A DNA stretch of 64,000 nt, taken from NCBI GenBank assembly GCA_916048095.2, contig OU696577.1:4620001-4684000 (forward strand), given 5' to 3'. This document shows, piece by piece, positions 9,591 through 58,366 of the stretch. The stretch comes from Sacculina carcini (lineage: Eukaryota; Arthropoda; Thecostraca; Sacculinidae). The notes below the pieces were generated by a model. The model was not told the origin of the DNA. It made no database searches and worked only from the letters and a program-made list of their open reading frames with translations. The translations under genes were made by a program, and so were the position numbers. The first letter of the stretch is position 1. Every line of letters begins with the position of its first letter.

Positions 9591-9690
9591 TGTCCACCAT
9601 GAAGCTGAAGGTTGGTAAATGTCCCACTGATGAGCTGTCCATCAGCAACTGTGCCGTGGCCAATTCTACGGAGCCGACCCGCGATAAACA
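9591..9690 (+). CDS. NSF: NSF exon 1 (first coding exon)
   Basis: The ATG at 9599 in a good context (CCACCATGA) starts MKLKVGKCPTDELSISNCAV, which matches the start of the NSF N domain (KCPTDELS.TNCAV in the family). Coding bases 9599-9690 give 30 codons plus two bases. The donor is GTCAGT at 9691. An acceptor TATATTGCAG ends at 9590, only eight bases before the ATG, so a separate upstream 5' UTR exon is likely. It was not located. The N domain binds the SNAP-SNARE complex. The N-terminus is as short as in other invertebrate NSF proteins, but the ATG is chosen by homology and context only. Confidence 0.88.
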
Positions 9691-9734
9691 GTCAGTCTTC
9701 TCCATTACATCGCGTCCAATACTCCATATTAGCA

Positions 9735-10890
9735 CTGTCTAAGCTTGCGTACTTTTTAGTACACGTATCATTATTAAAATGAATTAACAAGATGACAAAG
9801 AAGAGTGTATACGCTATATATTGCATGATTTCAATATCCGTGTACCTTTATATCGAGAGAGAGAGAGAGATAGAAATAAGTGTAGTAATATCAGGAAAGC
9901 AAATTAAAGGAAATGAAGTGAGGCGAAGCAGCATTAGATTTGCACACACACACCCTCAACGTACAAAAGTTGACCTCAACGTACACAAGTACAAACATTA
10001 ACAAATGATAATGGACCGAATTATAATGCAAAAAATTACACTGGTCAATATTGTGTGTTGAATTTATATGAAACAGTTGGCATTGCAGAATTTTTTCCCT
10101 AATTTCATATCTGAAGCTATTTTTTTCTCAAATATCTGTATTGCAATGTGAATTTTTATATATCACAAAATTTTGTCCTCATCACGGTGTTGTAGACTAT
10201 CATGAATGATATGCTATAAAAGAAGTTATAAGTAGGGTGACCTTTTGGTGCGCTAAAAATTAAGAATAGTTGCGCTAAAAAATTTCCTAGAATCCTAAAA
10301 GGCACTAGCGCTAAAACGTTGGACTTAAATTTTTCCAAACATTTCGCTAAAACCCGTAAAAGGTTAGTGAAAATCATTTAATTATGAAAAACACTTTTTT
10401 GTGAGGAAAATTTATACTTTTTACATTCGATAACTATTACCACAATACGTTTTGAGCACTCGCGGTTGTGCTAGAATTTCATGCTTCATGAGCTTCAACT
10501 GTCACTTCACTGGCGATTTTGATGCGCTTAAAATCGCAAATTGTTGCGCTAATAAGTTTAGCTCAATGCTTCGCAAATATCGTCAATTTGAAATAATAGG
10601 GTAATACAATTTAAACACTGAAATCACTCCTTAACATTACACTTTGGGAGTTTCACGTTTTTGTTTCCACTCAATGCATTCTGAACATTCGCGGTTGCGT
10701 TAAGATTGTGTGTTGCTTGTGTGTCATATGCTTGTCTAGTCTGTCGAGTATGTCGCACTGATGCATGGTATTGACATTTAAATACATAATATAATTTGAA
10801 ATTCTCACTTGATGCTAATTTTCTCAAATGTTTCAAGGTCTAAATAGATTTTGCCGATAAAGCATCATCTGAATATGCGGTAATTATATT
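9735..10890. other. Intron 1, proximal part without recognised elements
   Basis: AT-rich sequence with a (GA) run at 9857-9870 and a (CA)5 run at about 9943-9952. Several CGCTAAAA repeats occur between 10250 and 10560. No coding similarity is visible. The CA run lies about 250 bases after the exon 1 donor. Confidence 0.4.
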
Positions 10891-10969
10891 CAAGTGTTGT
10901 CAGTGCCGGATTTAGGCATGTGGAGGTCCCTGGGCAATTTATGTGTGGAGGCCCCTGGTCAATCAATGT

Positions 10970-12250
10970 ACTCACCTAGTTGGGTTACAGGATATGAGCT
11001 ATGCTCGGACTGTCCTGTCTTTCTTCCAATAGTTGTCTACTTTTTTTTAAACAGCGTTAAACTATCGACTTCTACAATCGTCTTGTGTAAACTGTTCCAT
11101 TCATTCACACAGCGGAACGGAAAGCTATATTACTTTATGTCTTTTCTACATCTCGTTTTTCTCAATTTTTCGTTATGGCCTCGTCCTCGTTGGTTTTGCT
11201 GCACCAGTCCAATTTCTTTCGAATCCAGTATTCCTGTCATGAATCTGTAGATGTTAATTAAGTCTCCTCTCTCTCCTTCTCTCCAACGTTGGTAGATTCA
11301 TCTCATCCAACCTTTCCTCATAGGGTAGCGCACGAATCTCCGGTACTAGTTTGGTCGCCAATCTCTGTAATTTTTCAATTTTTCTTATATGTCGCACTTC
11401 GTGAGGGCGCCATACAACAGCAGCATACTCAATTCTTGGTCTGATTATTGTCACTAATATATTTCTCATCATATCTTGGTTGATGTGACTGAAGACGTAT
11501 CTCATGCGTGTTATTGCTGCATATGTTTTCCGGTATATATCATTCACATGAGCATCTGGAGACAAATTTTTTATTATAACTCCAAGATCTTTCTCTTGAT
11601 CAGTTTCCATCAGTTTCAAGTCTCCCAGCTTATACTCAAACAATGGCCTTTTTTTGACTAGTTCCAAATTTCATTACATGACATTTTGAGTCATTGAAAC
11701 TCATCAGCCCTTCGCAACTCCATCGATGCAACTTCTTCACATCGCCTTGTAGTATTTCACAGTCTGTAGCACTTGATATGAAACATTATGGGTCCCAAAA
11801 CCGGTCCCTGAGGCACGCCGCTACTCAAATCTCTCCATGATGACGTCGCTCCTCTCATTGTGGTGCTCATCCTTCTTCCTACGAGAAAATTTTTCATCCA
11901 GTCCAATAATTTTCCTTCAATTCCATCATAATTTTCAAGTTTCCATAAGAGTCTCATATGTGGCACCTTATCGAACGCTTTACGCATATCGAGATAAACA
12001 CAATCTGCCCACTGGTCTCGCTCTTGAATTGCATCAACAATCCTGCTGTAAAGGCACAACAAACTCGAAACACATGATCTGCTAGCTCTGAATCCGTGTT
12101 GAGAATCTGACAATAGCTCCTCCTCTTCCAGGTGGCGCACCCATCGGTCCTTTATAATGCCCTCACATAATTTGCACAAAATGCTTGTCATAGAAACTGG
12201 TCTGTAATTGGACGGATCATTCTTTGTTCCTTTCTGGTAAATCGGCACAA
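10970..12250 (-). pseudogene. CR1-like LINE ORF2 remnant, internally deleted
   Basis: Read on the minus strand, ORF2 starts abruptly at IYQKGTKNDPSNYRPVS (about 12240). It continues through QHGFRASRSCVSSLLC, VYLDMRKAFDKVPH and SSGVPQGPVLGPIMF (about 11770). The segment that should hold YADD is missing: the sequence goes from MFHI directly into the post-palm region. The thumb (LGDLKLMETDQEKDLGVI) and C-terminus (GDLINIYRFMTGI, then WNSLHKTIVEVDSL) run to about 10990. The endonuclease and RT N-terminus are absent. It cannot be active. Confidence 0.75.
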
Positions 12251-12289
12251 TTTTTGACTGTTTCCATTGATTGATCGTTTTTCTCTCAT

Positions 12290-13170
12290 CTCTTTTACTT
12301 TTTATTTTAGCACTTCCCTCTCATTCCAGTTTAAATCAGGCTTGATCCACACATTTTGGTATTCCGTCTTGTCTCTCAGTCTCCATGTATTTCTCAACAC
12401 TTCATCAGCTACAGTTTTCGATCTGTACTTTATTCTAATCGGTCTAGATTTTCCTGCTTGAAATCTGTGTACATCCTCTATATGATGATTCTGTGTGATG
12501 AATGAATGAATTCTGAATGATTCTGTGTACATCCTCTATATCGTTTTCCACTCCCCTCTCCTGCTCATCTATTACAGTGAGTAGCTGCTTCACTTTATTC
12601 TTTTCCTTCTCTTTCAGCTTTGGGTGGCACAACCTCTTCTTCAATGCCGAATACAACGACATTTCTGTCTCTTTCCACAATATCTTTCACCAATTTTGTC
12701 TTTTTATTAAGAACCTGAACACATGTTCTTTCCATTTCTGCCTTTTTCATTTCTTTCTGTTCTTGCATTATCTTTTTAAAGTCTTCTACTTTTCCTCATA
12801 AGAATTTTTCCACCCTGTTTGCTCCTTTTTTATTCTATTCAAATCTTCCGAGCGTTCCTTATCTTTCTCTTCAGTGGAGCTCATTCTCTTCCTGAGCTCC
12901 GCATTCTCATTCTTCAGCAGAGAGAGCTGCTCCTTCAACATTTTGTTTTCGTTCATAATTTTCTTGTTCTCCGTTCGAACGCATTCCATCTCTGGCTCTA
13001 TCGTCATCAACGAGTCGATCTTTTCTCGAAATTGACCAATTTCTTCTTGAATCTCATCAATTCTTGCAGCATTTTTTTCCACATTTATATCAACTTTCTC
13101 GCCTTTCTTTTGAGTTTCCCTGACATACTTCTACAAAGTAGCTTCTCTGACAATAACAATATCTAGTGAG
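12290..13170 (-). pseudogene. CR1-like LINE ORF1 with coiled coil
   Basis: On the minus strand the first part is a strong heptad-type coiled coil (about 13080-12790, rich in E, K, L, N; for example MLKEQLSLLKNENAELRKRM). After frame changes an RNA-binding-like region follows with IRIKYRSKTVADEVLRNTWR and WIKPDLNWNEREVL near 12320-12440. This is the ORF1 layout of CR1/L2-type LINEs. A short segment (ATTCTGTGTACATCCTCTAT) is repeated about 50 bp apart near 12470 and 12520. ORF1 is joined almost directly to the middle of ORF2 at about 12290 by a large deletion. Confidence 0.65.
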
Positions 13171-14078
13171 CACTCCCAGGACTTATCTTAAGACAGGCCA
13201 GTCCGCACATAGTCCCCTGAACCACTAGGTTCCACGCCAGTCTGCTGGAGCACTAGGTTCCACCGCCAACCGGTCGAACACACACACAGTTTCACCACAC
13301 GAAAACAGTTTCACCACAAACACCACCACACGATTTCGCTATCCGCCACTGCACAGGTTCAAGTTCAGGCTCAATGAACTAAACACCTTGAGACACGTCC
13401 GAACACGATCACAGCTGACACAAGACTGTGTGGAGGTCCTTGGGAAATCTATGTATGGAGGCCTACTCTGCTTGAGGCGGGTGGCGACCGAAGACACTGG
13501 TGGGCGCTGTAAGCTCCACCGGAAATCATCATTGCCGGTCCAGCCAGTAATTAATTTTGGTCATCTTAATCACGTTTGCAAAATGACCTTTCCTGACTAT
13601 GTACACTCGAGTATGAAAAGTATTGGCAAATAAATAGCATATGTTTTATTACCATAAATCTAAATATGTTAGTTTGCCATTCATCACGACTCTTCACACC
13701 TGACTGTACAAACAGACCAAATTTCGAAGGTGATTAGGAAGCATGAACCATACTCAGTGCCGCCAATCTTGAAACCAAAACCAAAGTTTCTTCGTAGAAT
13801 AGGGAAAACTATAGCTATATCTGTGTTTACAGACCAGACACTTTACGAGACTTGGCCCTTGCAAATTTGGTGATTATTATGTTAAATTCACTCATTGGTT
13901 TTACTGCAGTTTTCCGTGATAAAGAAAGGTAACTCATAAATATCATACTTGTGTTTTATTCCTGACTGAAAAAAGTTATATTCCTTATATATTTACTGAA
14001 ATTATTCAAGCCTGGGTCTTTTTTGAGGCGCCCTAAAATGGGGAAGCACCCTAAATGTGGAGGACCCTGGGCAGATGA
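13171..14078. other. Intron 1 interval with degenerate repeats
   Basis: A GTGGAGGTCC(T/C)TGGG(A/C)AA(T/A) segment at about 13431 resembles one at about 10919 on the other side of the LINE, and a weaker copy occurs near 14058. They may be pieces of one older repeat or of flanking DNA. No coding signal is seen. Confidence 0.35.
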
Positions 14079-14618
14079 CTAAACTGAGAATCAAATTTGA
14101 ATGAGACGTTAAATACTCTAGAAAATTCCAATATAAAAGTATATAAAATTCATGCCGAGTGCGCATTTGCACTGCCGTTTGATGTAGTTAAATTCTGGCT
14201 AGGTGCAGGATGTTGTGATGCGCTTCTCTGTTGGTTGTTGATGTTGGTTTGTCTAATAGATGAAAGAATTACGTCAAGTTGTTGTTGGACGTTTATAGTT
14301 GGTTTCCTCGTACAAATATATTGGAATATTTATATTGGAATTTTCTAGAGTATTTATCGTCTCATTCAAATTTGATTTTCAGTTTAGTTTATATTTATCT
14401 ACGATTGTTATAGGTATATATATATGCCCCTGAAGATGACATTAATATATGTCGAAAGGTGCCTCGGGCAAAAATGAGTTTTTCGGTACTACTGGGAAAG
14501 TTCTCTGAAAACCAGAGGAAGCTGGTGAGACGTATTGAGAAATGTACATACAAAAAAAAAACACAGAAAATGCTGTAGAATTTAACAGAGCATGCATTAC
14601 AAATGGCCTACTTCCAAG
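14079..14618 (+). mobile_element. Penelope-like element 5' region with snap-back arms
   Basis: This shares long stretches with 38455-38763, including CCCCTGAAGATGACATTAAT, GTCGAAAGGTGCCTCGGGCA and TTTCGGTACTACTGGGAAAG. These are typical of the non-coding terminal region of Penelope-like elements. Bases 14079-14137 are repeated in inverted orientation at 14329-14388 (about 59 bp, few mismatches), forming a hairpin-type terminus. The element is cut at 14618 by a Tc1 transposon inserted at a TA. Its reverse transcriptase probably resumes at 17632. Confidence 0.7.
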
Positions 14619-15900
14619 ATACAGTGCTGTGCAAATTAGTTCGGACAGTAATGAAATGATACGATATTTTACAACAATGATGCTTCATTTAGGGAAAACA
14701 CGTCAGAGGTGAAAAGATTGTAAAATTAATATCATATATGACCTCCTTTTGCGTTTACAAGCATTTGAACACGTTTTGGCATAGATTTGACCAAAGTTGA
14801 ACACATTTTAGCCAGTTCTTCATCATGATACCAGACCCTATTTACATTACTAATTAGCTTTTGCATTGTCGTGCAGTCTTCTTTCTGGAGCCTTCGTTTG
14901 ATTAAGGCCCATGGGTTTGCAATGGGATTGATGTCGGGAGAATTTCCAGGCCAGTCTGTAAGCGTCAGTCCACTTTCTTCGAAGAATGTGCTTATTTTAC
15001 GTGAAGTATGGTATGGTGCCAGATCTTGTTGGAAAATGCCGTCTCCATCAGGAAAGTCCTTTCTCATAGTAGGAAGCAAATGAGTCTGCAAAATAGCTTT
15101 GTATTTATCACTGTTCATCATGTCCTCTACGTCAAAGAGTCGCCCGGTACCTTTAGCGCTGAAACTACCCCACACATCTTCTTAGGTGGATGTTTGGGCG
15201 CTTGTTGAATGTGCCCCGGCCGAAGCGGCTCACCTTTGCTTCGTCTTACGACCTGTGACCTGTAACCGTGAACTTCAAAATGTGATTCGTCTGAAAAAAT
15301 CACTTTTTTCCAGGCGTATGTTGTCCATCCAGCATGCTCATGTGCCCAGTTAAAGGGTATTTTCTTCATAATGGATGTTAATAATTGTTTCATTTGAGGT
15401 TTTCTGGCAGGTCTGTCAGCCTCAAGAAGTCTTCGTCGGACAGTCGAATAAGATATATTTACGTCTGCAGTAGACAAATCTCTCTGAAGGTCTGCACTGG
15501 TTTTCTTAGGAGCCTTCACACTATTTCTGATGATAATTTTGTCATCGTGAGGCGTTGTCTTGCGTTTTCTTCCGCATCTTCCTTGCCTTCGTGTTGAAGA
15601 TTCACCAGTATCCTTTTGTCTCTTCAGAATATCACCAACAGTTTACTTAGCCACCTTCATCTTGTCAGAAATCTGTCTAATAGTGAAACCACTGTGTTCT
15701 CTAAGTGCTAGAATGCATGCACGCTTCTTAGGAGTGATATCCATCACGAAAAGGAGGTGAATAATCCTTCAAAATCAAATATGACTCAGGACGTCCGTAG
15801 CAACAGAGTTTGTCTTCACGACATATGTCAGTTGCCAAACACCACTACAACACTAATATATCTGGAAAACAAGGAAACCGTAAGCAGAATAGCCAAAAAG
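14619..15900 (-). pseudogene. Tc1-type transposase, broken
   Basis: The left terminus CAGTGCTGTGCAAATTAGTT at 14619 is a Tc1-type inverted repeat following a TA. The minus-strand transposase starts at 15740 (MDITPKKRACILALREHSGF, helix-turn-helix), meets a stop after KMKVAK, then reads through the DNA-binding region and IFSDESHFEV (first Asp). A frameshift lies near 15160. The rest follows: FQQDLAPYHTSR (second Asp) and SPDINPIANPW. The third catalytic residue, normally Glu in NPIENLW, is Ala here. The right inverted repeat is missing and sequence similarity stops near 15900. The element is dead. Confidence 0.85.
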
Positions 15901-15929
15901 TTTGATTGATGCGAAATATTATTCAAAAT

Positions 15930-16205
15930 CCAATGTAAAGACAAAATGAGCTCTGAAAAATGCCTCGGTCCGCCTTGGTCCATTTTTTTCAATTTTTTCC
16001 ATCAATTTTATGCCAGTTATTACTCGGCAGCCACTCGGTGTACACACTAAAAATTTACACCATAATGTTGGAAATTATGTTCTCTACGCGATAAGTTAAA
16101 TTTTAAAATTTGAAAAATAATTTTAGAAAAAGTTATAGCGGTGTAAAGACATAATGAGCCCTGAAAAATGCGAAAATTTTGGTCAATATTCTGCATCTAC
16201 TTCTA
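15930..16205 (-). repeat. Terminal part of the 343-bp-unit repeat family
   Basis: The sequence matches, in reverse orientation, the distal end of the large non-coding repeats elsewhere in intron 3 (for example GTTATAGCGGTGTAAAGACA and CCCTGAAAAATGCG). The match continues on both sides of 16140. It joins the Tc1 remnant on the left and GGGCGGG modules on the right. Confidence 0.7.

Positions 16206-17576: not shown

Positions 17577-17631
<55 letters not shown>
17577..17631. repeat. (TA)n microsatellite
   Basis: An uninterrupted TA dinucleotide run between the last GGGCGGG module and the Penelope-like reverse transcriptase. Confidence 0.95.
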
Positions 17632-17635
<4 letters not shown>

Positions 17636-21440: not shown

Positions 21441-21474
21441 ACGTTACAACTAGCATCCAAATGTAAAATGTAAA

Positions 21475-21494
21475 TGTGTGTGTGTGTGTGTCAG
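21475..21494 (+). promoter_or_regulatory. TG-repeat 3' splice site of NSF exon 2
   Basis: The acceptor is preceded by an almost pure (TG)n run ending in TGTGTCAG. There is no polypyrimidine tract. The same arrangement is found at every internal NSF exon. Confidence 0.8.
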
Positions 21495-21710
21495 ACACAT
21501 GGAGGTGTGCACTGCTCCTGGTGTGTCGTTCATTTTCACCACGCTTGGTCATCCCGGCGTTGAGCCCGGCTACATCGGGTTCTCGATGCCGCAGCGCAAG
21601 TGGGCCAGCTTGTCCATCGGTCAAGACATTGAGTGTCGGCTGTACAAGTTCGATAATTCGCAGTATCTCAGCTCCATCGTACTGCAAGCCGACTTCATGC
21701 AGAAGCGCAG
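21495..21710 (+). CDS. NSF: NSF exon 2 (N domain)
   Basis: Encodes residues 31-102. It joins exon 1 in phase 2 (CA then ACACATGG) to give QHMEVCTAPG, followed by IFTTLGHPGVEPGYIGFSMP, then QRKWASLSIGQDIE and VLQADFMQKR. The PQRKWA.LSIGQ.IE and DF.QK patterns are hallmarks of the NSF N domain. The donor is GTGTCA at 21711, and the intron then starts with a CA-rich tract. The segment has the same length as vertebrate NSF here, which supports both splice sites. Confidence 0.92.
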
Positions 21711-22037
21711 GTGTCACTTGCCACACACATTCATGGGACACACAAACACATACCACTGAGATTCGGGGGATAGGCGGATATCATATGGAAAACACATATT
21801 AAGTCAAGCGTATTCTACTCGGGGAGCAAAGATGAGCTCATAATTTACTCTATAAGCTGATGTGCATCTGTGTTCTGGGAATGAGCAGTTTCTCTTGCTA
21901 GCTTGCTAGCTTGCTTAAGGATAAACTCTCTTGCTATCTCTTATCTCTCTTCTTATCTCTTGCTCTCTTGCTAGCTTGCTTAAGGATAAGTACACTTAAC
22001 TATGAGTGTGTGTATGTGTGCTTGCGCGTGCGAGTAG

Positions 22038-22183
22038 CACCACAACGGAGCCGTACGATAGTGACCGTATGGCCGAGGTGTTCAGCTCTCATTTTGCGGG
22101 CCAGGCATTCACTGTCGGGCAGCAGCTGGCGTTCGCGTTTGAGTCCAAGAAACTGCTCAGTTTGACGGTGAAGAGCCTACAGG
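22038..22183 (+). CDS. NSF: NSF exon 3 (N domain)
   Basis: Encodes residues 103-151: STTTEPYDSDRMAEVF, FAGQAFTVGQQLAFAF and LLSLTVKSLQ, matching NSF N subdomain B (QAFSVGQQL.F.F). The acceptor is a double site, CGAGTAG. Use of the second AG (22037) gives exactly the family length. Use of the first (22034) would add one Ser and keep the frame. The donor is GTGAGT at 22184, phase 1. The 327-bp intron before it is the shortest in the gene. Confidence 0.92.
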
Positions 22184-23235: not shown

Positions 23236-26200
23236 AATACTAGCATTAAAACCCGCCCGTTGTGCGGAGCAATTCATTGAAATATTGCAAATTAAAAACA
23301 AATAAGGCAAACTCATAAAAACCTTAATCAATTAAAAAGTCTAAATTTCATTATTTTTAATTTTATTTTGACAAAATATTTTCACTCAGCCCGCCTCATA
23401 TTTAAACCCGGCCGACGTGCGGAATAATTCAGAACTCGAACACCATCCGTTCTGGTTCTTGAAGTCAAATCCATTAGTTTTGTATATGAATTCATTCTAC
23501 ACGGTGAAATTGAACGTTTTATTGCTGCCCGCGGGACATTTTTTTTTCATAAAAATGAGCCATCGCTTCGTTTGCGTTTGAAGCCCCTGATCATTGAACC
23601 AGCGAACCATGAACCAGCGCAATTATGTCACCTCATATTCAAGCATACATACACAGACAGACAGATAATTTCTTCTTTATGTATATATATAGCATTCAAA
23701 CCCGCCCGTTGTGCGGAGCAATTCATAACATGAAATTCATATTCAATTCATAAAAAATATGGAAAAATAAAAATGAAATAGGGTACACTCATTGAAATAT
23801 TCATCTATTGAAAATTATAAGTTTAATTATTTTTATTTCGACAAAATATTTCCCCTCAGTCCGCCTGAGTCATTTTTAAACCCGCCCGTCGTGCTGAATA
23901 ATTCAGAACTCGAACACGATCCGTTCTGGATCTTGAAGTCAAATCCATTGGTTTTGTGTATGGATTAATTCTACAGGGTAAATTGAACGTTCTATTGTCT
24001 ATAGTTGCTGCCCGCGGATCATTTTTATTAAAAAAATACCTTTTTTTAAATGAACCATTTGAAAAAATGAACTAAAAAATGGAAACACTTTTCTTAAACC
24101 CGCCCCTCGTGGGAAAAAAATTAGTGAAAATTGAAACAGAAAAACAAACCCATAGGAATGTTTAGCCAATATGAAAGTCTAAATGTGAAATTTATGTTTC
24201 AATTTAGAAAACATGTTTTTCCACAACCCGCCTCATATTTAAAGCTGCCCGTCGTGCGGAATAATTCAGAACTCAAACACGAAACAAACACAAAGAAAAT
24301 TCAAGAAAAACGACCAACAGAAAAAGTGAAATTTGTAAATTCTTGTTTTAATTATTGACGATGTTTTTCCCTCAACACTGCTCAAATTCACACCCGTCCT
24401 TCGTGTGTAGTAATTCAGAAGTGTAACACTATCAAATCAATGAAACTTTCTGTCATCTCTATAATTCCAGATTTATGCGTCCGCTAAAACAGCATATTCA
24501 TATAGTTGGCATTGCATGATATTACAACCCATATCCTTATGCAACTTAAGCTTATGCAACTTGAAATTAAACCAATTATATTATACAGTAAAATTCAGTA
24601 GTTAACTTTGTTCCCAGTAGTATTTTACCCGCCCGTCGGGCGGAACAATTCATGTGTAAATCTTGAGGACAATAAAGCCATTCTATTCAGTATAGTGTAT
24701 TCCTATTCTAGTATATTCTATTATAGTATATCCTAGTATATTCCTGTGTAATCGCAAGTGCGCATAATAGCTGTCAAATTGGTAATACATGTATGTGCTT
24801 TTGACTTTACACCGCCGTAACTTCCTTCAGATACACTTTGGAAAATTACAAATTATACCGTATTGTAGAAAACAAGATTTCTAGCACGATGGTATACTTT
24901 ATTTTTATGTGTAACAAATATTTACTGAGAAATAGTAGAAAAATGAATATATTTTAGTCGCCCGGTGTTCAAGTGTAATTTTGGATGTAAGTGAGAATTT
25001 TGCCAATTTTACACGTTTTTTGTATCATCTGTGGGTATAAATTATAACTTATATTGTAGAACACAAAGTTCTCTACACAGTAGTATATTCTTGTGTAATC
25101 GCAAGTGCGTAAATTGTGATTGGACTTCAGTGAAATTAAATCAGTGTATATTCCTGTGTAATCGCAAGTGCGCATAAAAGCTGTCAAATTGGCAACATGA
25201 CATTTTGACTTTACACCGCCGTAACTTCCTTTAGATATATTTTGGAAAATTAAAAATTCTACCGTATTGTAGAAAACAAAATCTCTAGCACGATGGTATA
25301 ATTCATTTTAATTTGTGACAATTAGTTTTTGAGAAATAGGTAGAAAAATGAATTAATTTTAGTCACCCGGTGTTCAAGTGTAATTTTGGATGTATTTGCG
25401 AATTTTGCCAATTTTACACGTGTTTTGTATCATTTGTGGGTATAAATTATAACTTATCTTGTAGAACACAAAATTATCTACACAGTAGTATATTCCTGTG
25501 TAATCGCAAGAGCGCATAATAGCTGTCAAATTGGCAATATGTCCTTTTGACTTTACACCGCCGTGACTTCCTTTAGATACACTTTGGAAAATTACAAATT
25601 ATACCTTATTGTAGAAAACAAAATTTCTAGCACGATGGTATAATTTATTTTTATGTATAACAAATAGTTACTGAGAAATATTAGAAAAATGAATTAATTT
25701 TAGTCGCCCGGTGTTCTAGTGTAATTTTGGATGTATTTGAGAATTTTGCCAATTTTACACGTTTCTTGTATCATTTGTGGGTATAAATTATAGCTTATAT
25801 TGTAGAACACAAAATTCTCTACACAGTAGTATATTCCTGTGTAATCGCAAGTGCGCATAATAGCTGTCAAATTGGCAATATGTCCGTTTGATTTTACACC
25901 CCCGTAACGTCCTTCAGATACACTTTGGAAAATTACAAATTATACCGTATTGTAAAAAACAAAATTTCTAGCACGATGGTATAATTTATTGTAATGTGTG
26001 ACAAATAGTTCCTGAGACATGGGTAGAAAAATGAATTAATTTTAATCACCCGGTGTTCAAGTGTAATTTTGGATGTATTTGAGAATTTTGCCAATTGTAC
26101 ACGTTTTTTGTATCATTTGTGGGTATAAATTATAACTTTTCTTGTAGAACACAAAATTATCTACACCATAGTATAATTTTTATAGCTGTACCATTGCTGG

Positions 26201-30385: not shown

Positions 30386-32337
30386 TTTTATTTGAGACTT
30401 GAAATTAAACCAATTAAATTATACAGTAAAATTCAGTAGTTAACTTTGTTCCCAGTAGTATTTTACCCGCCCGTCGGGCGGAACAATTCATGTGTAAATA
30501 TTGAGGACAATAATGCCTTTATATTCAGTTTACTGTACGCAATAAAACCACACCATCCATGCTTGGAGCTAATATGATGCATTATAAATTGTGATTGGAC
30601 TTCAGTGAAATTAAATCAGTGTATATTCATGTGTAATCGCAAGTGCGCATAATAGCTGTCAAATTGGCAACATGACATTTTGACTTTACACCGGCGTAAT
30701 TTCCTTCAGATACACTTTGGAAAATTAAAAATTATACCGTATTGTAGGAAACAAAATTTCTAGCACGATGGTATATTTTGTTTTAACGTGTGACAAATAG
30801 TTACTGAGAAATACGTAAAAAATGAATAAATTTTAGTCGCCCGGTGTTCAAGTGCAATTTTGGATGTATTTGAGAATTTTGCCACTTTTATACGTTTTTT
30901 TATCATTTGTGGGTATAAATTATAGCTTATCTTGTAGAACACAAAATTATCTACACAGTAGTATATTCCTGTGTAATCGCAAGTGCGCATAATAGCTGTC
31001 AAATTGGCAATATGTCCTTTTGACTTTACACCGCCGTAACTTCCTTCAGATATACTTTGGAAAATTACAAATTATACTGCATTGTAAAAAACAAGATTTC
31101 TAGAACGATGGTATAATTTATTTTTATGTGTAGCAAATAGTTACTGGAAAATAGTAGAAAAATGAATTTATTTTAGTCGTCCGGTGTTCAAGTGTAATTT
31201 TGGATGTATTTGAGAATTTTGCCAATTTTACACGTTTTTTGTATCATTTGTGGGTATAAATTATAGCTTATCTTGTAGAACACAAAATTATCTACACAGT
31301 AGTATATACCTGTGTAATCGCAAGTGCGCATAATAGCTGTCAAATTGGCAACATTACATTTTGACTTTACATCGCCGTAACTTTCTTCAGATACACTTTG
31401 GAAAATTAAACATTATACCGTATTGCAGAAAACAAAATTTCTAGCACGATGGTATAATTTATTTTTATGTATAACAAATAGTTACTGAGAAATAGTAGAA
31501 AAATGAATTAATTTTAGTCACTCGGTGTTCAAGTGTAATTTTGGATGTATTTGAGAATTTTGCTAATTTTACACGTTTTTTTATAATTTGTGGGTATAAA
31601 TTATAACTTTTCTTGTAGAACACAAAATTATCTACACAATAGTATAAGTTTTATAGCTGTACCACTGCTGGTTTATCAGGACTGGATAGCGGAATAATGA
31701 CCAAAATATTAACGTTTTTGTGTGCTAATTTTGCCTTTTTGACTTTGTCATTTACACTTCACACCTCCGTAACTTTTTTTTAATACACTTTGAAAAATAA
31801 AAAATTACACCGTGTTGTAGCAAAGAAAATTCCCAGCATGATGGTATTATTTATTTAGATGTGTGATAATTAGTTTTTGAGAAATAGAGAAAAAAGTATA
31901 GAAAATCGGACGCGTGGAGTTTAAAAAATATTTTGAATGTAGATTGAATTTTTCCCATTTTACATGTCTTATATTTAATTTTTGGGTATAAATTATAGTT
32001 CGTTGAGTAGAACAGAAAAATTCCTACACAGTGGTGTAATTTGTATAGTTGTACCAATGCTGGTTTAGGAGGAGTAGTCTTCAGAAAATTGACCAAAATT
32101 TTCGCATTTTTCAGGGTTCATTTTGTCTTTTCACCGCTCTAATTTGTTTTGGTTTTATTTTTGAAATTAAAAATTTAGCCTACAGTGTAGACAAGAAAAT
32201 TTCCAACATGATGGTATAAATTGTTAGCGGGTACGCCAAGTGATGGCCGAGTAGCAGCTGATAGAATATGGACCAAGGAGGGTGGGACACACAAACAGAC
32301 AGACAGACAGAGGATCTCTTTTATATATATAGATATA
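30386..32337 (+). mobile_element. Large non-coding repeat element, forward copy 2
   Basis: It starts inside the family at the TTGAAATTAAACCAATTAAA segment and has CCCGCCCGTCGGGCGGAACA at 30465. Tandem units carry GTGTAATCGCAAGTGCGCAT markers at about 30630, 30970 and 31312. It ends with GGGTACGCCAAGTGATGGCC, (ACAG)n and AGAGGATCTCTTTTATATAT. It is the second complete 3' end of the family. The GGGCGGG-module half is lost. Confidence 0.6.
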
Positions 32338-37302: not shown

Positions 37303-37350
37303 TATGTATGTGCGTGTATGTGTGTACGCGTGTTTGTGTGTGGCTGGCAG

Positions 37351-37489
37351 CGGCCGACCTGGCTGCGATCAAGGAGGGTCGCGAGGCGGCGCCGCGAGAC
37401 ACGAGGCTCGGTCTGCTACTGGCCAACACGGCCGTGCAGTTTGAGAAGGCCGAAAACTCGGGCATCAACATCACCGGCAAATCCAAAGG
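37351..37489 (+). CDS. NSF: NSF exon 4 (N domain to D1 linker)
   Basis: Encodes residues 152-197: AADLAAIKEGREAAPRDTRL, GLLLANTAVQFEKAENSGIN and ITGKSKG. It corresponds to the variable end of the N domain and the conserved QVAFEKAENSSLNL.GK segment. The acceptor GGCTGGCAG follows a TG-rich tract, and joining is in phase 1 to exon 3. The donor GTTCGT at 37490 is weak, but the phase-2 junction to exon 5 is exact. The exon is more GC-rich than its surroundings. Confidence 0.9.
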
Positions 37490-42416: not shown

Positions 42417-42833
42417 AGTAATGCAAATTATAGGAGCTACAAAAACGCGTCCGCACGCAATGACTGCACAAAAGAAACTGACAGGCAGGCAGGTTCTATT
42501 ATAAACAAATCCAATATCATGGAAGAATGCACGCACTATAAACCCATACACCGGAAGTATCTCAAAGATGTTGAGAGAGAGAGAGTTTAAGAATTAAGCT
42601 AATTTGGGAAGGTTAGAGCTAATATAGAAATAGCTAACGAAAATATAAAATACAAACGCCAAATTTAAGTGTATATACTTTACAGTTCATAAAGGTTTAC
42701 ATATTTACAGTTCATAAAGGTTGACAATTATCAGTTTCTGCCAGACAATTTTTTGACACTTTTTTTTGTCACTGTATTCGCCCTGTTTCGTCTAATTTCC
42801 TTAATACACACCACTGTGTATATGTGTGTGCAG

Positions 42834-42976
42834 CACGCAAGTGCGACAGTCGCTTATCAACCCCGACTGGGACTTCAACAAAATGGGTATCGGCGGCCTG
42901 GACAACGAGTTCAACGCAATCTTCCGGCGTGCGTTTGCGTCGCGCGTGTTTCCGCCCGAAATCATCGAGCAACTGG
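42834..42976 (+). CDS. NSF: NSF exon 5 (start of D1)
   Basis: Encodes residues 198-245: [40 protein letters not shown] and PEIIEQLG. This matches the [34 protein letters not shown] block that opens D1 in NSF. The acceptor is TATGTGTGTGCAG and the donor GTCAGT (42977), phase 1. The other two frames give no NSF similarity, which fixes the phase. Confidence 0.93.
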
Positions 42977-43320
42977 GTCAGTGGGTCATATAAGCGGCAA
43001 TCAGTGGAAGTATCTTGCTTTTTGCCGATTTTTTGTATTTATGTTTTGCTTGTTTCCATTTGAGGATAAAGTGGTTATATTGGACACTCGCTATTTAGCT
43101 GGTCGCATTATCTATATTCGTTTATTTTTGTTCTTAATAAGCCGGCGGGCGAATGTGGTGTTTTTCTGAATGATGCTCTAATTTGAACACAAGCACACTG
43201 CAGATTGCCAGTTCATACGCGGCCGCAATGTTCTCAAGAGTTTACCGTAGACAAACGGCGGTGCATCCGGTGGGTTAGTTTGAAACCACTACTTTTGATA
43301 GAGTCGCACGCCTTATAACT

Positions 43321-43351
43321 TGTGTGTGTGTGTGTATGTGTGTGTGGGCAG
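43321..43351 (+). promoter_or_regulatory. TG-repeat 3' splice site of NSF exon 6
   Basis: Nearly pure (TG)n over 30 bases ending in GTGTGGGCAG. It is the cleanest example of the UG-type acceptor in this gene. Confidence 0.8.
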
Positions 43352-43551
43352 GGTGTAAGCACGTAAAGGGTATTTTATTGTTTGGCCCACCGGGCACGGG
43401 CAAGACATTGTTGGCGCGCCAAATCGGCCAGATGTTGAATGCGCGCGAGCCCAAGATTGTCAACGGCCCGCAGATTCTCGACAAATACGTCGGCGAGTCG
43501 GAGGCCAACATTCGCAAATTGTTCGCCGATGCAGAGGAAGAGGAAGAGAAG
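43352..43551 (+). CDS. NSF: NSF exon 6 (D1 Walker A)
   Basis: Encodes residues 246-312: [40 protein letters not shown] and [20 protein letters not shown]. The Walker A motif GPPGTGKT is at residues 257-264 with the nucleotide-binding Lys at 263. The KYVGESE pore loop segment, which grips substrate in the ring, follows. The donor is GTTTCA at 43552, phase 0. D1 is the ATPase ring that drives disassembly of the SNARE complex. Confidence 0.94.
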
Positions 43552-46625: not shown

Positions 46626-46735
46626 CGTGGAATATATATATTTTATACGTATTATACGTTACATATTTTATATATATTTCGTGGTATATATATATATATA
46701 TACGTCGTATGTATGTGTGTGTTTTTGTTGTGTAG

Positions 46736-46901
46736 ATGGGTGTAAATTCCGGCCTGCACATAATCATATTTGATGAGTTAGACGCCATATGCAAGCAGCG
46801 TGGCAGTGTGTCCAGCGGCTCGGCCGTGCACGACACAATTGTCAATCAGCTGCTGTCGAAAATTGACGGCGTCAAACAACTCAACAACATCCTGGTGATC
46901 G
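46736..46901 (+). CDS. NSF: NSF exon 7 (D1 Walker B)
   Basis: Encodes residues 313-367: [40 protein letters not shown] and [16 protein letters not shown]. Walker B is IIIFDE, with the catalytic Glu at residue 326. The exon starts exactly at ATG after GTTGTGTAG, phase 0. The Met is internal and not a translation start. The donor is GTGCGT at 46902, phase 1. The match to vertebrate NSF is continuous without gaps. Confidence 0.94.
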
Positions 46902-52412: not shown

Positions 52413-52430
52413 TAAAATGGTATATGTGTA

Positions 52431-52432
<2 letters not shown>

Positions 52433-52490
<58 letters not shown>
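52433..52490. repeat. (TA)n microsatellite
   Basis: A TA run between the Penelope-like fragment and a 32-bp-arm hairpin. Confidence 0.95.
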
Positions 52491-52492
<2 letters not shown>

Positions 52493-52560
52493 GGTCGATT
52501 TTGATTATTGGTGTGACTTGGACATATCCCAAGTCACACCACTAATCAAAATCGACCGGT
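52490..52560. repeat. Hairpin with 32-bp arms
   Basis: Arms 52490-52521 and 52529-52560 (ACCGGTCGATTTTGATTATT and its complement, one mismatch) surround a 7-base loop. It may be two transposon termini joined head to head, or a foldback element. It precedes a Tc1-like transposase. Confidence 0.85.
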
Positions 52561-52599
52561 TGTCTGTGAACTTTCAATGAGAAGCGGTTGCATTCCAGG

Positions 52600-53735
52600 A
52601 CGTTGCTGGATTTTGTCGTTATTTGTCGTTGCCTCAGGCTGGAGTTTTTCCGTATTTTGGGACAATGCAGCGTGGCCCAAAGCTGCCGAACGAACACATT
52701 GCAGAGATATTGTCAGCGTATGTGGCTAGAGAGTCAAACAAGGATATCTCCACACAAACCGGAGTAGCACTTCGTAGTGTCTAGACATGAACAGAAATTC
52801 CAAAGCTCCAGTCGGTTGCGGTTCATCACATCAAACTTGAATTGATTCAGGGAAAGTCGAAGCCGAGCTGAGGACAAAGACAAAAGAAATCAAAGCAAAA
52901 ATCAACAACTTCTGTGTAAGGTATCTGTGAAGATAGTGCAGCGCCGCCTCAAATATAACCTCGGGTTTGAGCATGGATTTACGACGTGGTGCACCACGTC
53001 GTAAATCCATGCTGACGGGGAAGCAGAGGCAGAACAGAGTGAAATTTTGCAGACAGTACAATGACTGGCACAATGAGCCTTGGAAAAATGTATTATGAAG
53101 TGAACAGGTAACGTGTTGCGTGAGTGCGAGCAGGGGCGACAAGGTGAGACCGCGACCAGGGTCACATCCGTACACCCCAGGTACATACATGGGACGGTTA
53201 AGTACCCAAATATTTTCATGGTTTGGGGTTAATTCGGGTATTGTGGCGCTGGTAAATTGGTGTTGTTGCGGAAAAATACTATGGTCAGTAAAGAAGGTCA
53301 GTTGGAGCTTCTTTTTGACCATTTGGAATACTGTTATGGTGCATGCAGGTCCGAAATCTTCAAATATGACGGAGCTCCAGCCCAAACAGCCAAACCGATC
53401 AAACAATGGTTCGATTTTGTGGGAATATATTGCATACTTAACTGGCCTGACGATAGACCCGATTTGAATTTCATTCAATATATTTGGAGGCTCTCAAAAC
53501 ACAGACTACGCAAAAGGGACACTTCAACAGTCCCAAGCTCGTCAAGCCGATCCAGAACAGCTGGAACACTTAAAATATATTTGATTCAGGGTCTTTCTGA
53601 GTAAGTTCCATGATGTCCGCATGGTTGTGTTCAGATAATTGGACTTCCCAAATAGCATTGCTGATATGTACGATGCCTCTCCTTGTCATTTTTCTTAAAT
53701 TTTACAATAAAGTTGTTCCGCGCCAATACTTATGG
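52600..53735 (+). pseudogene. Tc1/mariner-type transposase, heavily decayed
   Basis: A helix-turn-helix start MQRGPKLPNEHIAEILSAYV followed by RESNKDISTQTGVALRSV is at 52664-52780. The catalytic part near 53360-53500 reads FKYDGAPAQTAKPIKQWFDF, then LNWPDDRPDLNFIQYIWR. The DGAP Asp is kept, but the Glu of the usual NPIENLW is Gln. Many stops and frame changes lie between, and a 40-bp palindromic segment (ACGACGTGGTGCACCACGTC) is at 52981-53002. Clearly inactive. Confidence 0.7.
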
Positions 53736-53757
53736 CGTTGACTGTATGTAAAATGTT

Positions 53758-54141
53758 TGTAACGAAAACAAAACAACTGAAATATATTACAGATAGGCGC
53801 GCATGGGCATCACTGCCCCAAGCGCGCCTACAAGACGTCACAACCCTACAGCACTTCCAACACGACTCCACGCTCTCACCGTGACACACGGGAACACACA
53901 CGGACACACACACACACACGCACAGCCCTCACACCCACCGCAACAACCAATCAGCGGCGAGCCGATTACTCGCTCGCCGCCGCGGGTCATGGACAATTCA
54001 CAGCGTTACACTCATACACACATACAAACACAGTAAACGACGCAAACGCAAACGCGAATCACAGACACACACACACACACTAAACCATACACACTCCAAC
54101 GCGCTCACACACACTCTCACACAATGCATAATCAAACCACA
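53758..54141 (+). mobile_element. Solo LTR related to 46101-46454, upstream of exon 8
   Basis: It begins TGTAACGAAAAC and ends AAACCACA. Flanks are ATGTT at left and ATGTA at right (4 of 5). It shares the AGGCGCGC hairpin, CCACGCTCTCACCGTGACAC, CAACCAATCAGCGGCGAGCC and long CA tracts with the other copy. Its right end is 60 bases from NSF exon 8, and the TG-rich acceptor tract fills the gap. Confidence 0.8.
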
Positions 54142-54201
54142 ATGTACATATGTCTGTGCGTGTGTGCATGTGTATGTATATGCTTGCGTGTGTGTATTTA
54201 G

Positions 54202-54371
54202 GTATGACAAACCGCAAGGATATGATTGACGAGGCTTTGTTGCGTCCCGGCCGATTGGAGGTGCAGGTGGAAATCGGTCTCCCCGACGAGAAAGGTCGCG
54301 TGCAGATCCTCAACATTCACACGGCCAAGATGCGTACTTTTGGCAAGCTGCACTCCGACGTTGATGTGGAA
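54202..54371 (+). CDS. NSF: NSF exon 8 (D1, arginine fingers)
   Basis: Encodes residues 368-424: [40 protein letters not shown] and [17 protein letters not shown]. This is the second region of homology of AAA proteins, with sensor Asn 371 and the arginine-finger pair Arg 382 and Arg 385 in LLRPGRLE. The acceptor GTGTGTATTTAG follows a long TG-rich tract. The donor is GTGAGT at 54372, phase 0. The match to the family is gapless. Confidence 0.94.
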
Positions 54372-55030
54372 GTGAGTTAATCGTGGCTTCGCTGAGATGA
54401 TCATCCCTGTCTGTCTCAGTTTGTGGTGGACGTTCTGCAGCTATGGAGGGCTAAATTCATGAGAATGTACATGTCGCGTATTGTGTGTGACTCAAAGGTG
54501 TTTTATGGTGTGTATACGTCACATTTGTGATTGTGTGTGTAGATGGTTTAAAACAGTGTTACATGCCGGAAGTGTTCGGTAATGCGTTAAATGTTTTCAA
54601 TCGTTCATGAATGTGTGAGCGTATGGGCTGCGAGTATCTAAATGTTTCTTGATGTCCGCGTGTGTTATAATATCACACAAACACCATATGTGTCTAGTTT
54701 TTCGCTTCACATCACATTGAACTACACTGAGTGTACAGTTGCTTATTCATTTATACATAAGTGGTTTAGGGAGCGTATCCCCGAGCAACCTCATTCCGCC
54801 CAGAATCGAACTCGTCACCATGGGTTTTCGCGTTTGTGTATATTTGTATGTGTGTGTTCATAATTCATAGTTTATATTATCAGCTGTCACATAAACGAAT
54901 TGAGCAAAACAGTATAGAGGCACAATATCCATCGTGCGGACTCTGTTAGACGAACATAAATTGAGACAATACGTGATTATGTAGTGACAAATCTTATATG
55001 TTGTAGTTGTGGTGTAATAGGTGTTCGTTG
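54372..55030. other. Proximal intron 8 without recognised elements
   Basis: Mixed sequence with short TG-rich pieces. No conserved coding similarity. It ends in a TG repeat at 55030-55070. Confidence 0.4.
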
Positions 55031-55079
55031 TGTGTGTTTGTGTGTGTGTGTATGTGTGTGTGTGTGCTCACACACACAC

Positions 55080-57560
55080 ATATTTTCCTTATGTTAATCC
55101 GGGACCACTATCTGAGCCAGTTAATTCGTTCTCCCACGAGAGGCGATAACGTGTTGGACGTTGTCTTGACAAACAACAACGACATTTTTGAAGAATACAC
55201 TATAAATAAGACCCATATATCAGACCACAATGTGATTACACTGACCACCAACTTTCTTCAGACCCAAGTGGTGACAGATTACGTCAATATGAACTCAATC
55301 ACGTTTAGTTGTTTGAACTTTCATAGCCAATCGATCTTCTGGAACGACTTGAAGAACGACCTGACGAGAGTGGATTGGCATCAAAATATGCTCGAGCAAG
55401 ATCCTGGAGCTCAGTACAATGTCCTGATCTCTAAGTGCGTGGATTTTCATTGAGACACGTGTCTCACAAGAAGCCACCCCCTACAACGCACATACCGCGA
55501 CACAGAAAAGTCTTGATGAGAAGGAGATGAAAGTTGCGTAAAAGACTCGTAACGACTATTGATTTCCGGCGCAGAGCACAATTAGAGGAAAAAATTGGAT
55601 CCATAGAAGATCAATGAAAGAGTCTGTGGAAACTGAAAACAACAGAAAGGAGGAGCATGCTGTGTACTGCATTAAGAGCAACCCTGAGTACTTTTATAAG
55701 TATGCGGCCAGCAAATCGCATACAAGAACGGGTGTTGGTAGCCTGGTAGATGCCGACGGTCGGCTCATGGATGACCCAGGAGATTTTGCTGATGTCCTTC
55801 GACAGCAATATGAGAGTGTCTTCAGTACTCCAGACAAATATGAAATCGTTACAACTCCCACAGATCTGTTCTCGGATACTAAAGAGTGTCTGACGGACGT
55901 TGAACTCACTCCAGGTGGTATTGTGCAAGCAATCAACGAGTTAAGCGTCAACACAGCCGCTGGTCCAGATCAGTTTCCTGCAGCATTGTTGAAGGCTTGT
56001 GCCGAAGAACTCTGCATTCCTCTTTTGTTGCTTTATCAAAACTCTTTAAGGACTGGAATTGTTCCAGCTGGTTTGAAAAATGCGAAAATTACACCGATAT
56101 ATAAAGGCGGCAGTAGAACCTATCCAAAAAACTACCGACCAGTGTCTCTCACTTCCCACATCGTCAAGGTATTTGAAAAGATTCTGGTGAAGGAGATGGC
56201 AACATATCTGGAGGACAAGTGTAAGCTAAATGAGAACCAACACGGATTTCGTTCAGGTCGATCCTGTTTGTCGCAGTTGCTCGCACACTACAACACTGTG
56301 TTGAAGTATTTGGATAACGGCCAGGACGTTGACGTGGTCTACTTGGACTTTTCAAAGGCTTTCGATAAGGTGGACCACGGCATACTCCTACGCAAAATTC
56401 GCCAAAGCGGAGTATCGGGAAACCTCGGACGTTGGCTGCACTATTTTCTAACGGACAGAACACAGACTGTGGCAGTGAACGGTGCTGAATCCAGGCAGTC
56501 GAAAGTGGATAGCGGAGTACCACAGGGAACTGGGCCCACTGCTGTTTATCATCTATATTTCTGATACTGATCTGAATGTGCAGCACTCGTCAGCTGCGTC
56601 GTTCGCGGATGACACTCGCGTCATGCGGCCGATTGCCTCGTCGGCAGACACTTATTTGTTGCAGGCGGATCTCGGATCCCTGTATCAGTGGCTGAGCTGA
56701 ACAATATGGCGTTTAACGACCATAAGTTTGAACATGTTAGCTACAGACACAATGTAGGCTGCGGTTACTCGCACTGCTTTATTGCCCACGATAATTCTCC
56801 CATCGCTATCAAACAGCACGTTAGAGATTTGGGTATCACCATGATTAGCGATGGAAAATTTACATTGCACATACAGAACGTGGTGAAGAGAGCCCGATTC
56901 CAAACTGGGTGGATCCTTCGTACATTCCGAACTCGAGACGAAACACTAATGCTGACTTTATACAGGTCGCTTGTGCTGCCGCTGCTGGAGTATTGCTGCC
57001 AACTCTTGAGTCCCTGGAAAGTCGGAGAAAAGCAGCTACTTGAAGGAGTTCAGCGGTCTTTCACCGCAAAAGTGGTTAACGTCAGGCATCTGGGATACTG
57101 GGACAGGCTTGTGGCTTTGAAGCTGTACTCGTTGGAGTGGCGCCGTGAGAGGTATCTTATCATCTATCTGTTCAAAATATTGACAAGTAGGGTGACAAAC
57201 AGTGTTTGTATCCATCTCTACACTCACGTGCGCTTGGGTCCCATGTGTCATATCGAAAAATCGAATCCCAGAGCGGCTGCCAGAATAAGAACACTCAAGG
57301 AGAGTGCATTATCAGTTGGAGCCCCTCGCTTGTTCAACGCGCTGCCCAGACATCTGCGTGTTACGGATGGGTACAGTCTGGAACAGTACAAACATAAATT
57401 GGACGAGTTTTTGACTATATTACCGGACCAGCCAAAACTGCCGCATTATAACATCCGAGCATCTAGCAACTCAATCGTGGACCAGCTGGCGCTGAGACGA
57501 GCGGACGGACATTTTTAGCGGTGGTGCATCAGCATGGCCACGGGCGAGACTGCCAGCCCA
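55080..57560 (+). pseudogene. Jockey/CR1-type LINE, 5'-truncated, near-complete RT
   Basis: It starts inside the endonuclease C-terminus (IRSPTRGDNVLDVVLTNN, SDHNVITL). RT motifs follow: TAAGPDQFPAALLKACAEEL, KNYRPVSLTSHIVKVFEKIL, NQHGFRSGRSCLSQLL, VVYLDFSKAFDKVDHGILL and DSGVPQG near 56510. A frameshift lies there, then PLLFIIYISDTDLNVQHSSA and SFADDTRV (catalytic region, 56605). The C-terminal part 56688-57518 is one open frame with LPLLEYCCQLLSPWKVGEKQ and GAPRLFNALPRHLRV. Few lesions, so a fairly young copy. It is flanked by TG repeats on both sides. Confidence 0.85.
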
Positions 57561-57827
57561 AAACCCGAACTACAGGAACTAAAAGTGTGTGTATGTGTGT
57601 GGGTGTGGGTGTGTGTGTGTGTGGCTTATGCTTCGTGTATTTGCTGGTTGAAGCTATAGGTGTCAGGAATCAAGAACATTAGATTGATAAATATTGATTT
57701 AACGAATTTCTTTCAGTCCTAACCTAACCTAAAATCTATGAAAAATATAGAAACGTTTTTGTGCGTTTTTAATGTTCTTGAGTCCTAATTGTTTTTAAAT
57801 CCTTACACATTTAGCCTAGACCGTATT

Positions 57828-58114
57828 TGCTAGCTTAATGCTTTGCGCATTGTGTATGTATGCGTGTGTGTGTGTGTGTATGTGTGTGTGTGTGTGTGTG
57901 AGTGTGTGTTTGCAAAGTGCAGTGTTTGCAGGGCGCGTTCTGGGTATCGCGTGGCGGTTTGATCGGGTGTTGAGATGTGAGGATGTGTGTGTGAGGAGTC
58001 GGTGTTCGGGCGTCTTCGCTGTGTGGTGTGGTCTTGTAGGCGCGCGTGGGACATTGCTGTCCCCCACGCGCCTGTGTTTTAATGTATCTTGTTTCAGTTT
58101 TTTTTCATGTTACA
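57828..58114 (-). mobile_element. LTR-family copy in reverse, upstream of exon 9
   Basis: The right end (GTTACA at 58109-58114) and the adjoining GTAGGCGCGCGTGGGACATT...CCCCACGCGCCTGTGT hairpin are the reverse complement of the left ends of the LTRs at 46101 and 53758. The left part is a TG repeat corresponding to their CA tracts. The CCAAT part is lost. No convincing target duplication, so the outer limits are approximate. It ends 63 bases before exon 9. Confidence 0.6.
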
Positions 58115-58177
58115 TATATATTCACACATAAATGTATGCCGCAATTATTACAATACAATGTATGTGTTGTGGGTTAG

Positions 58178-58366
58178 GAGGTGGCGCAGCATACGAAAAA
58201 CTTCAGTGGCGCCGAAATTGAGGGTCTGGTGCGTGCTGCACAGTCGTCGGCGCTCAACCGTCTCATCAAGGCCTCCAACAAGGTGTCGGTCGATCCGGAC
58301 GCCGCTATTAAGATATGTGTACAGCGCGCCGACTTCTTCCACGCCATGGAAAACGACATCAAACCG
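58178..58366 (+). CDS. NSF: NSF exon 9 (end of D1)
   Basis: Encodes residues 425-487: [40 protein letters not shown] and [14 protein letters not shown]. The [14 protein letters not shown] block is the C-terminal helical part of D1 containing sensor 2, and ENDIKP is where D1 passes to D2. The donor GTGCAT (58367) is followed by a CA-rich tract. No D2 exon is recognisable from here to 64000, so the gene continues to the right. Confidence 0.93.

What the first reader, a model, noticed from the sequence alone, without database searches (positions are those of the whole stretch)
9591..58178. All internal NSF acceptors use UG-repeat tracts instead of polypyrimidine tracts
Upstream of exons 2 to 9 the last 20-45 intron bases are TG-rich, often pure (TG)n: exon 2 GTGTGTGTGTGTGTCAG, exon 5 TATATGTGTGTGCAG, exon 6 about 30 bases of (TG)n, exon 8 GCTTGCGTGTGTGTATTTAG. 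None has a run of C/T. Eight of eight is unlikely by chance in one gene, although TG repeats are common here. Such acceptors may depend on UG-binding factors (CELF, TDP-43 types) or on structure rather than U2AF.
Basis: partly seen in the sequence, partly recalled or inferred. Interest (0 to 1): 0.75.

Follow-up and report, generated by a model that had tools for sequence, protein, structure and literature searches.

The report
UG tracts replace pyrimidine tracts at acceptors
In this arthropod genome the ends of most sampled introns carry alternating T and G instead of the usual run of C and T, so its splicing machinery probably reads a different signal from other animals.

Summary
NSF here is a 14-exon, 738-aa gene; exons 10-14 lie beyond the window. 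All 8 acceptors in the window, and 12 of 13 in the gene, are more TG-rich than 95% of windows from NSF intron interiors. In 79 introns from 17 genes on 10 contigs, TG exceeds CA before 75 acceptors; at raw protein-match edges, with no splice site chosen, before 79 of 80 exons. From -30 to -7, G is 30-38% and C 7-13%; pyrimidine runs are shorter than before decoy AGs, and upstream AG is avoided. The acceptor signal thus appears rewritten across the genome. U2AF1 is present. The U2AF2 model passed its cut-off at two places, both intronless, with diverged RRM2 domains. TDP-43 has three genes. Most likely U2AF still reads these acceptors with relaxed specificity, and UG-binding proteins modulate or assist. 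The AC-GT intron bridging known from fish was tested and is not general here. Closest known cases are fish AC-GT introns and the larvacean Fritillaria with duplicated U2AF.

The parts
9599..9690 (+). NSF exon 1 (from ATG); an acceptor-like ttgcag lies just upstream at 9585-9590
   Evidence: tblastn with recalled human NSF, spliced frame
21450..21494 (+). intron 1 acceptor tract, 17-base pure TG run, CAG
21495..21710 (+). NSF exon 2
21711..21760 (+). CA-rich start of intron 2
   Evidence: sequence
21993..22037 (+). intron 2 acceptor tract, TG fraction 0.41
22038..22183 (+). NSF exon 3
37306..37350 (+). intron 3 acceptor tract, TG fraction 0.59
37351..37489 (+). NSF exon 4
42789..42833 (+). intron 4 acceptor tract, TG fraction 0.28, also a 7-base pyrimidine run
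42834..42976 (+). NSF exon 5
43307..43351 (+). intron 5 acceptor tract, about 27 bases of TG broken by one A
43352..43551 (+). NSF exon 6 (start of the first AAA domain)
46691..46735 (+). intron 6 acceptor tract, TG fraction 0.41, also a 5-base pyrimidine run
46736..46901 (+). NSF exon 7
54157..54201 (+). intron 7 acceptor tract, TG fraction 0.54
54202..54371 (+). NSF exon 8
58133..58177 (+). intron 8 acceptor tract, TG fraction 0.28, ends gttgtgggttag
58178..58366 (+). NSF exon 9; five more exons follow outside the window, up to about 12 kb beyond its end
58367..58425 (+). CA-rich start of intron 9
   Evidence: sequence

Best explanation
The polypyrimidine tract of U2-type introns has been replaced, across this arthropod's genome, by a U/G-alternating tract between branch site and AG. 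The tract gives what the spliceosome needs from a pyrimidine tract: many uridines (about 45%) and a stretch free of AG, so that the first AG after the branch site is the right one. The U2AF1-U2AF2 heterodimer most likely still reads these sites, through a U2AF2 whose RRM2 has changed and tolerates G at every second base. UG-binding proteins (three TDP-43 genes, three CELF loci) assist or tune the choice. The tract probably arose by growth of TG microsatellites that selection tolerated, or favoured, just upstream of acceptors. Shown here: tract, position, strand asymmetry, AG avoidance, factor genes. Inferred: use by U2AF, role of TDP-43 and CELF, position relative to the branch site, evolutionary path.
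For: Strand asymmetry: in 79 introns (17 genes, 10 contigs) TG runs of 5 or more bases lie at -64..-5 in 66 of 79 and CA runs in 7 of 79; TG run coverage exceeds CA in 65, CA exceeds TG in 2, 12 ties. By dinucleotide fraction TG exceeds CA in 75 of 79. Choice-free test at protein-match edges: 79 of 80 upstream; downstream 40 for TG and 46 for CA of 87; inside coding 40 and 38 of 86. Against 634 decoy AGs inside introns, at -40..-5: TG/GT 0.50 vs 0.19, G 0.33 vs 0.21, C 0.10 vs 0.18, longest pyrimidine run 3.3 vs 4.5. AG occurs at 0.21-0.28 of expectation in the last 40 bases, and the previous AG lies at a median of 58 vs 17 bases. U2AF1 found. U2AF2 in two inverted single-frame copies: RRM1 81% alike, RRM2 61%, last 114 aligned residues identical; human N268, N271 and N289 (numbering recalled) changed in both. 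Three TDP-43 genes with both RRMs, whose six scored acceptors are each more TG than CA. U2 snRNA in 46 full-length matches.
Against: No transcript confirms any junction; all rest on protein homology, GT-AG and phase. Junctions outside NSF were chosen with human-like donor weights; 18 of 79 have low scores and at least one (cctD, 281 bases) looks misplaced. A few acceptors are not UG-like (three introns of CCT-C and two of CCT-E at a TG fraction of 0.10-0.18; one of six TDP-43 acceptors is mainly T-rich). No branch-site motif was found, so the place of the tract relative to it is assumed. TDP-43 and CELF copy number is only suggestive, and the U2AF2 changes could be unrelated; from recall, N268 and N289 also differ in plants.
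Confidence: 0.6

Rival explanations
1. AC-GT bridging introns as in fish: CA repeats near the 5' splice site pair with UG repeats near the 3' splice site, bring the ends together and make U2AF2 unnecessary.
For: CA runs of 10 or more bases follow the donor in 14 of 79 introns, some strikingly long; introns 2, 9 and 13 of NSF start CA-rich, without such runs.
Against: CA at donors is not clearly above interior level (14 of 66 vs 22 of 167 windows outside NSF, P = 0.16; 0 of 13 in NSF) and does not go with TG at the acceptor (9 of 14 vs 34 of 65, P = 0.56). An intron's own ends do not pair better than ends of different introns (1555 of 2000 shuffles as good), and reverse-complemented intron starts pair at least as well. 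U2AF2 is kept.
Confidence: 0.1
2. A UG-binding protein (TDP-43 or CELF type) has taken over acceptor recognition, with U2AF secondary.
For: Three TDP-43 genes with both RRMs and three CELF loci, one in a single open frame.
Against: In people TDP-43 at (UG)n before CFTR exon 9 represses splicing (PMC12171016, passages). U2AF1 and U2AF2 are retained. The third TDP-43 copy has W113F, F147Y and G148A (human numbering recalled) in RRM1.
Confidence: 0.17
3. UG tracts fold into pUG quadruplexes that mark the acceptor.
For: 13 of 79 introns have a pure TG run of at least 23 bases in the last 120; 23 is the minimum for the fold (PMC12962679, passages).
Against: 66 of 79 do not reach it with pure repeats; many are only G/T-rich. 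Interrupted tracts, which can also fold, were not scored.
Confidence: 0.04
4. Neutral: TG microsatellites are merely abundant here and drift into intron ends.
For: (TG)20 is matched 258,687 times forward in the genome, overlapping places counted. Introns outside NSF have TG bias inside too (48 vs 22 of 167 windows), and TG at donor and acceptor of the same intron go together weakly (rho 0.25, P = 0.026).
Against: A neutral repeat has no reason to prefer TG over CA at acceptors; 75 of 79 and 79 of 80 show it, with a peak in the last 50 bases. NSF interiors have few TG runs and no TG excess over CA.
Confidence: 0.06

Closest known systems
AC-GT introns of fish and lamprey (Lin et al., Genome Res 26:12; paper not held, known from recall and from passages in PMC7404189 and PMC12962679)
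   Same: UG repeats near the acceptor in place of a pyrimidine tract.
   Different: There paired with CA repeats near the donor and U2AF2-independent. Here most introns lack the CA partner, pairing is not intron-specific, and the signal is in nearly all introns sampled, in an arthropod.
Fritillaria borealis introns with duplicated U2AF (PMC13326754, passages)
   Same: Genome-wide shift of the intron-end signal together with duplicated U2AF2 whose copies differ.
   Different: There the terminal dinucleotides change and U2AF1 is duplicated too; here AG stays and the upstream tract changes. One U2AF1 gene was found here, plus a ZRSR-like match at 35% identity.
CFTR exon 9 (TG)m(T)n acceptor (PMC12171016, passages)
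   Same: (UG)n directly upstream of an acceptor, bound by TDP-43.
   Different: There UG tracts weaken one exon; here they are the usual acceptor in the sample.

Membership tests
AC-GT bridging introns | UG repeats close to the 3' splice site | tested here: met
   43 of 79 have a pure run of 10 or more within the last 120 bases
AC-GT bridging introns | complementary CA repeats close to the 5' splice site | tested here: not met
   14 of 79; outside NSF not clearly above interior, P = 0.16. Met by single introns.
AC-GT bridging introns | the two ends of the same intron pair specifically | tested here: not met
   1555 of 2000 permutations as good; wobble pairing makes this a weak test
AC-GT bridging introns | splicing without U2AF2 | not testable with these tools
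   U2AF2 model passes its cut-off at two places
U2-type GT-AG introns | GT...AG ends | tested here: inconclusive
   all 79 junctions use them, but GT-AG was required when 66 of them were sought; the 13 of NSF agree in homology and phase
U2-type GT-AG introns | pyrimidine tract upstream of AG | tested here: not met
   mean longest pyrimidine run shorter than at decoy AGs; 8 or more bases in 2 of 79 vs 7.9% of decoys
U2-type GT-AG introns | U2 snRNA, U2AF1 and U2AF2 encoded | tested here: met
pUG-fold RNA | 23 or more bases of GU repeat (or 12 suitably spaced G) | tested here: inconclusive
   13 of 79 by pure repeats; spaced G not scored

The most novel reading that the evidence does not exclude
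An animal lineage has recoded its constitutive 3' splice-site signal: UG-repeat tracts are the normal acceptor element. Its duplicated U2AF2, with altered RRM2, has co-evolved to read alternating U/G, and an expanded TDP-43 family, a repressor at such sites in people, has been turned into a helper or made harmless.
Probability: 0.3. Interest if true: 0.88.

Novelty: new variant of a known kind. Interest (0 to 1): 0.7.

Why it matters
Depletion of G just upstream of the acceptor and a pyrimidine tract read by U2AF2 are taken as near-universal in animals (recalled). Here G is nearly as frequent as T there. If transcripts confirm it, this is a natural experiment on how far the signal and its reader can move, on what the tract really does (bind U2AF2, or just stay AG-free), and on how a cell copes with TDP-43, which represses a UG acceptor in people. 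Gene finders trained on other animals would also misjudge acceptors in this genome.

Tried and rejected
AC-GT bridging was my leading idea after seeing CA-rich donors; co-occurrence and own-versus-cross duplex tests did not support it as a general rule. Duplex energies were a poor tool, because UG can pair with UG by wobble. A branch-site motif could not be isolated: enriched words at -75..-18 were mostly parts of the TG tract. The species could not be named: no COX1 match in the assembly and no eukaryotic reference collection; 94 cuticle-domain matches point to an arthropod (that the domain marks arthropods is recalled). An NSF-specific feature was rejected. Literature: in eight answered searches I saw, among the titles and abstract starts listed (10 to 25 per search, 2 in the last), no paper on UG tracts as the general acceptor of an invertebrate; the library holds open-licence papers only. 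Papers were seen as listings, abstract starts and 'find' passages; none was read whole.

Rows dropped before counts: 2 of 59 CCT matches (C12:8442276 and C4:6617563) were not fetched, being lone matches in long open frames. 8 of 88 match edges had no usable upstream stretch or were first exons. Exon pairs with a profile gap of more than 6 or an overlap of more than 25 positions got no junction. Six TDP-43 acceptors were scored; the others of the three genes were not fetched or not scored.

Full report
What was checked. The window lies at contig C9:4620001-4684000 of a 264 Mb, 43-contig genome. Joined at GT-AG sites in phase they give an unbroken 738-aa protein, 60.5% identical to that query over 734 columns. 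Pfam gives CDC48_N (just under its cut-off), CDC48_2, two AAA stretches and the NSF lid, and the N-terminal part matches solved NSF N domains such as 1qdn and 1qcs. So the acceptors under discussion are well placed, although no transcript was available.

Is it chance in NSF? In windows taken from the interior of the NSF introns the TG/GT dinucleotide fraction averages 0.131, with a 95th percentile of 0.256 (8593 overlapping windows). All 8 acceptors in the window exceed that, and 12 of the 13 in the gene. The interior of these introns has few TG runs: 6 of 525 windows of 114 bases have one of 10 bases or more.

Is it NSF-specific? No. Pfam searches gave 59 exon matches to chaperonin (CCT-type) genes and 129 to kinesins. 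I used 57 of the 59 and 31 of the 129. From these, 66 junctions were inferred in 16 genes; with 13 in NSF, TG dinucleotides exceed CA at -44..-5 in 75 of 79. Because choosing an AG could bias this, I repeated it at the raw edges of the protein matches: in the 60 bases upstream TG exceeds CA in 79 of 80; downstream in 40 of 87 with CA ahead in 46; inside coding in 40 of 86 with CA ahead in 38. Six acceptors of three TDP-43 genes, not used before, were each more TG than CA, though one is mainly T-rich.

What the acceptor looks like. Between -30 and -7, T is 38-46%, G 30-38%, C 7-13%, A 9-18%. Restricting to 61 better-scored junctions changes little: TG exceeds CA in 58. Against 634 AGs inside introns the acceptors have more G and T, less C and A, and shorter pyrimidine runs (mean longest 3.3 vs 4.5; 8 or more bases in 2 of 79 vs 7.9%). 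The base before AG is C (75%) or T (21%) in those 61, but that was favoured by my junction score. AG is rare in the last 40 bases and the previous AG lies at a median of 58 bases, against 17 at decoys. This is the AG-free zone that PMC10946897 (passages) argues is one reason for a pyrimidine tract; a (TG)n tract fulfils it by construction.

The bridging hypothesis. In fish, CA repeats at the intron start pair with UG repeats at its end and replace U2AF2 (PMC7404189 and PMC12962679, passages; the original is not held). Some introns here look so. But CA runs of 10 or more occur at 14 of 79 donors, TG runs at 11 of 79; outside NSF it is 14 of 66 donors against 22 of 167 interior windows (P = 0.16). 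CA at the donor does not go with TG at the acceptor (P = 0.56). An intron's own ends do not pair better than shuffled ends (1555 of 2000 shuffles as good). Bridging may serve a minority.

The readers. U2AF1 matches in three pieces on C21. The U2AF2 model passed its cut-off at two places, both single open frames, inverted and about 1.9 kb apart on C26. Their last 114 aligned residues are identical, RRM1 is 81% and RRM2 61% alike. Positions that align to human N268, N271 and N289 differ in both copies (P/G, T/S, H/H), while K195, F199, K225, R227, K260 and F304 are kept (numbering recalled, with K225, R227, K260 and F304 also named as RNA contacts in PMC4786784, passages). That N268, N271 and N289 contact the RNA is recalled; N268 and N289 do not occur in the main text of that paper. 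TDP-43 has three genes with N-terminal domain and both RRMs, two of them head to head. CELF has one single-frame and two multi-exon loci. U2 snRNA gave 46 full-length matches, most in one array. [quoted passage not shown]

Reading. The simplest account is that U2AF still reads these sites and that the pyrimidine tract has turned into a UG tract which stays rich in U and free of AG. Whether U2AF2 has adapted, or whether TDP-43 or CELF proteins take part, cannot be told from DNA. The case is a new variant of known departures from the pyrimidine-tract rule. In eight searches of an open-licence library I saw no report of a UG tract as the ordinary acceptor of an invertebrate among the papers listed, which is weak evidence of absence.

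Limits. No RNA; species unnamed, arthropod by 94 cuticle-domain matches (meaning of the domain recalled); mostly conserved housekeeping genes; junction choice partly mechanical; branch sites not identified.

Noticed in passing
C26:1032220-1036659 (locus L049): The two U2AF2 matches above cut-off are single open frames, inverted neighbours with an identical C-terminal part and diverged RRM2; looks like a retrocopy that was duplicated and is homogenised in part.
   Followed up: partly
C29:892679-895583; C26:5883107-5886230 and 5886767-5890281: Three TDP-43 genes, two of them head to head; the third has RRM1 aromatic changes.
   Followed up: partly
C11:1881371-2062534 and elsewhere: Eight full-length kinesin motor domains in single open frames within 0.2 Mb, and others elsewhere; apparently amplified intronless kinesin genes.
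   Followed up: no
C20:6202438-6429946: Array of U2 snRNA genes with the same score, often about 1.2 kb apart.
   Followed up: no
window 25142-26175 and 30617-31646: Two nearly equal arrays of a 341-base tandem repeat inside NSF intron 3.
   Followed up: no
window 11757-12320 (-), 15127-15642 (-), 55563-56564 (+), 60550-62475 (-): Mobile elements in NSF introns: two reverse transcriptase matches, a Tc3-type transposase, and an integrase match under its cut-off with DUF7047 nearby. Scanned as they stand.
   Followed up: partly
window 4216-7753 (+): Open frames of 533, 402 and 402 aa (stop to stop) in strongly C- and A-skewed DNA just upstream of NSF; the 533-aa frame has no Pfam match, the others were not scanned.
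   Followed up: no
window 9560-9599: An acceptor-like ttatattgcag eight bases before the NSF start codon, so a 5' UTR intron or a trans-splice site is possible.
   Followed up: no
window 22031-22037: The exon 3 acceptor reads gagtag: two AGs three bases apart, both in frame, so one codon may be optional.
   Followed up: no
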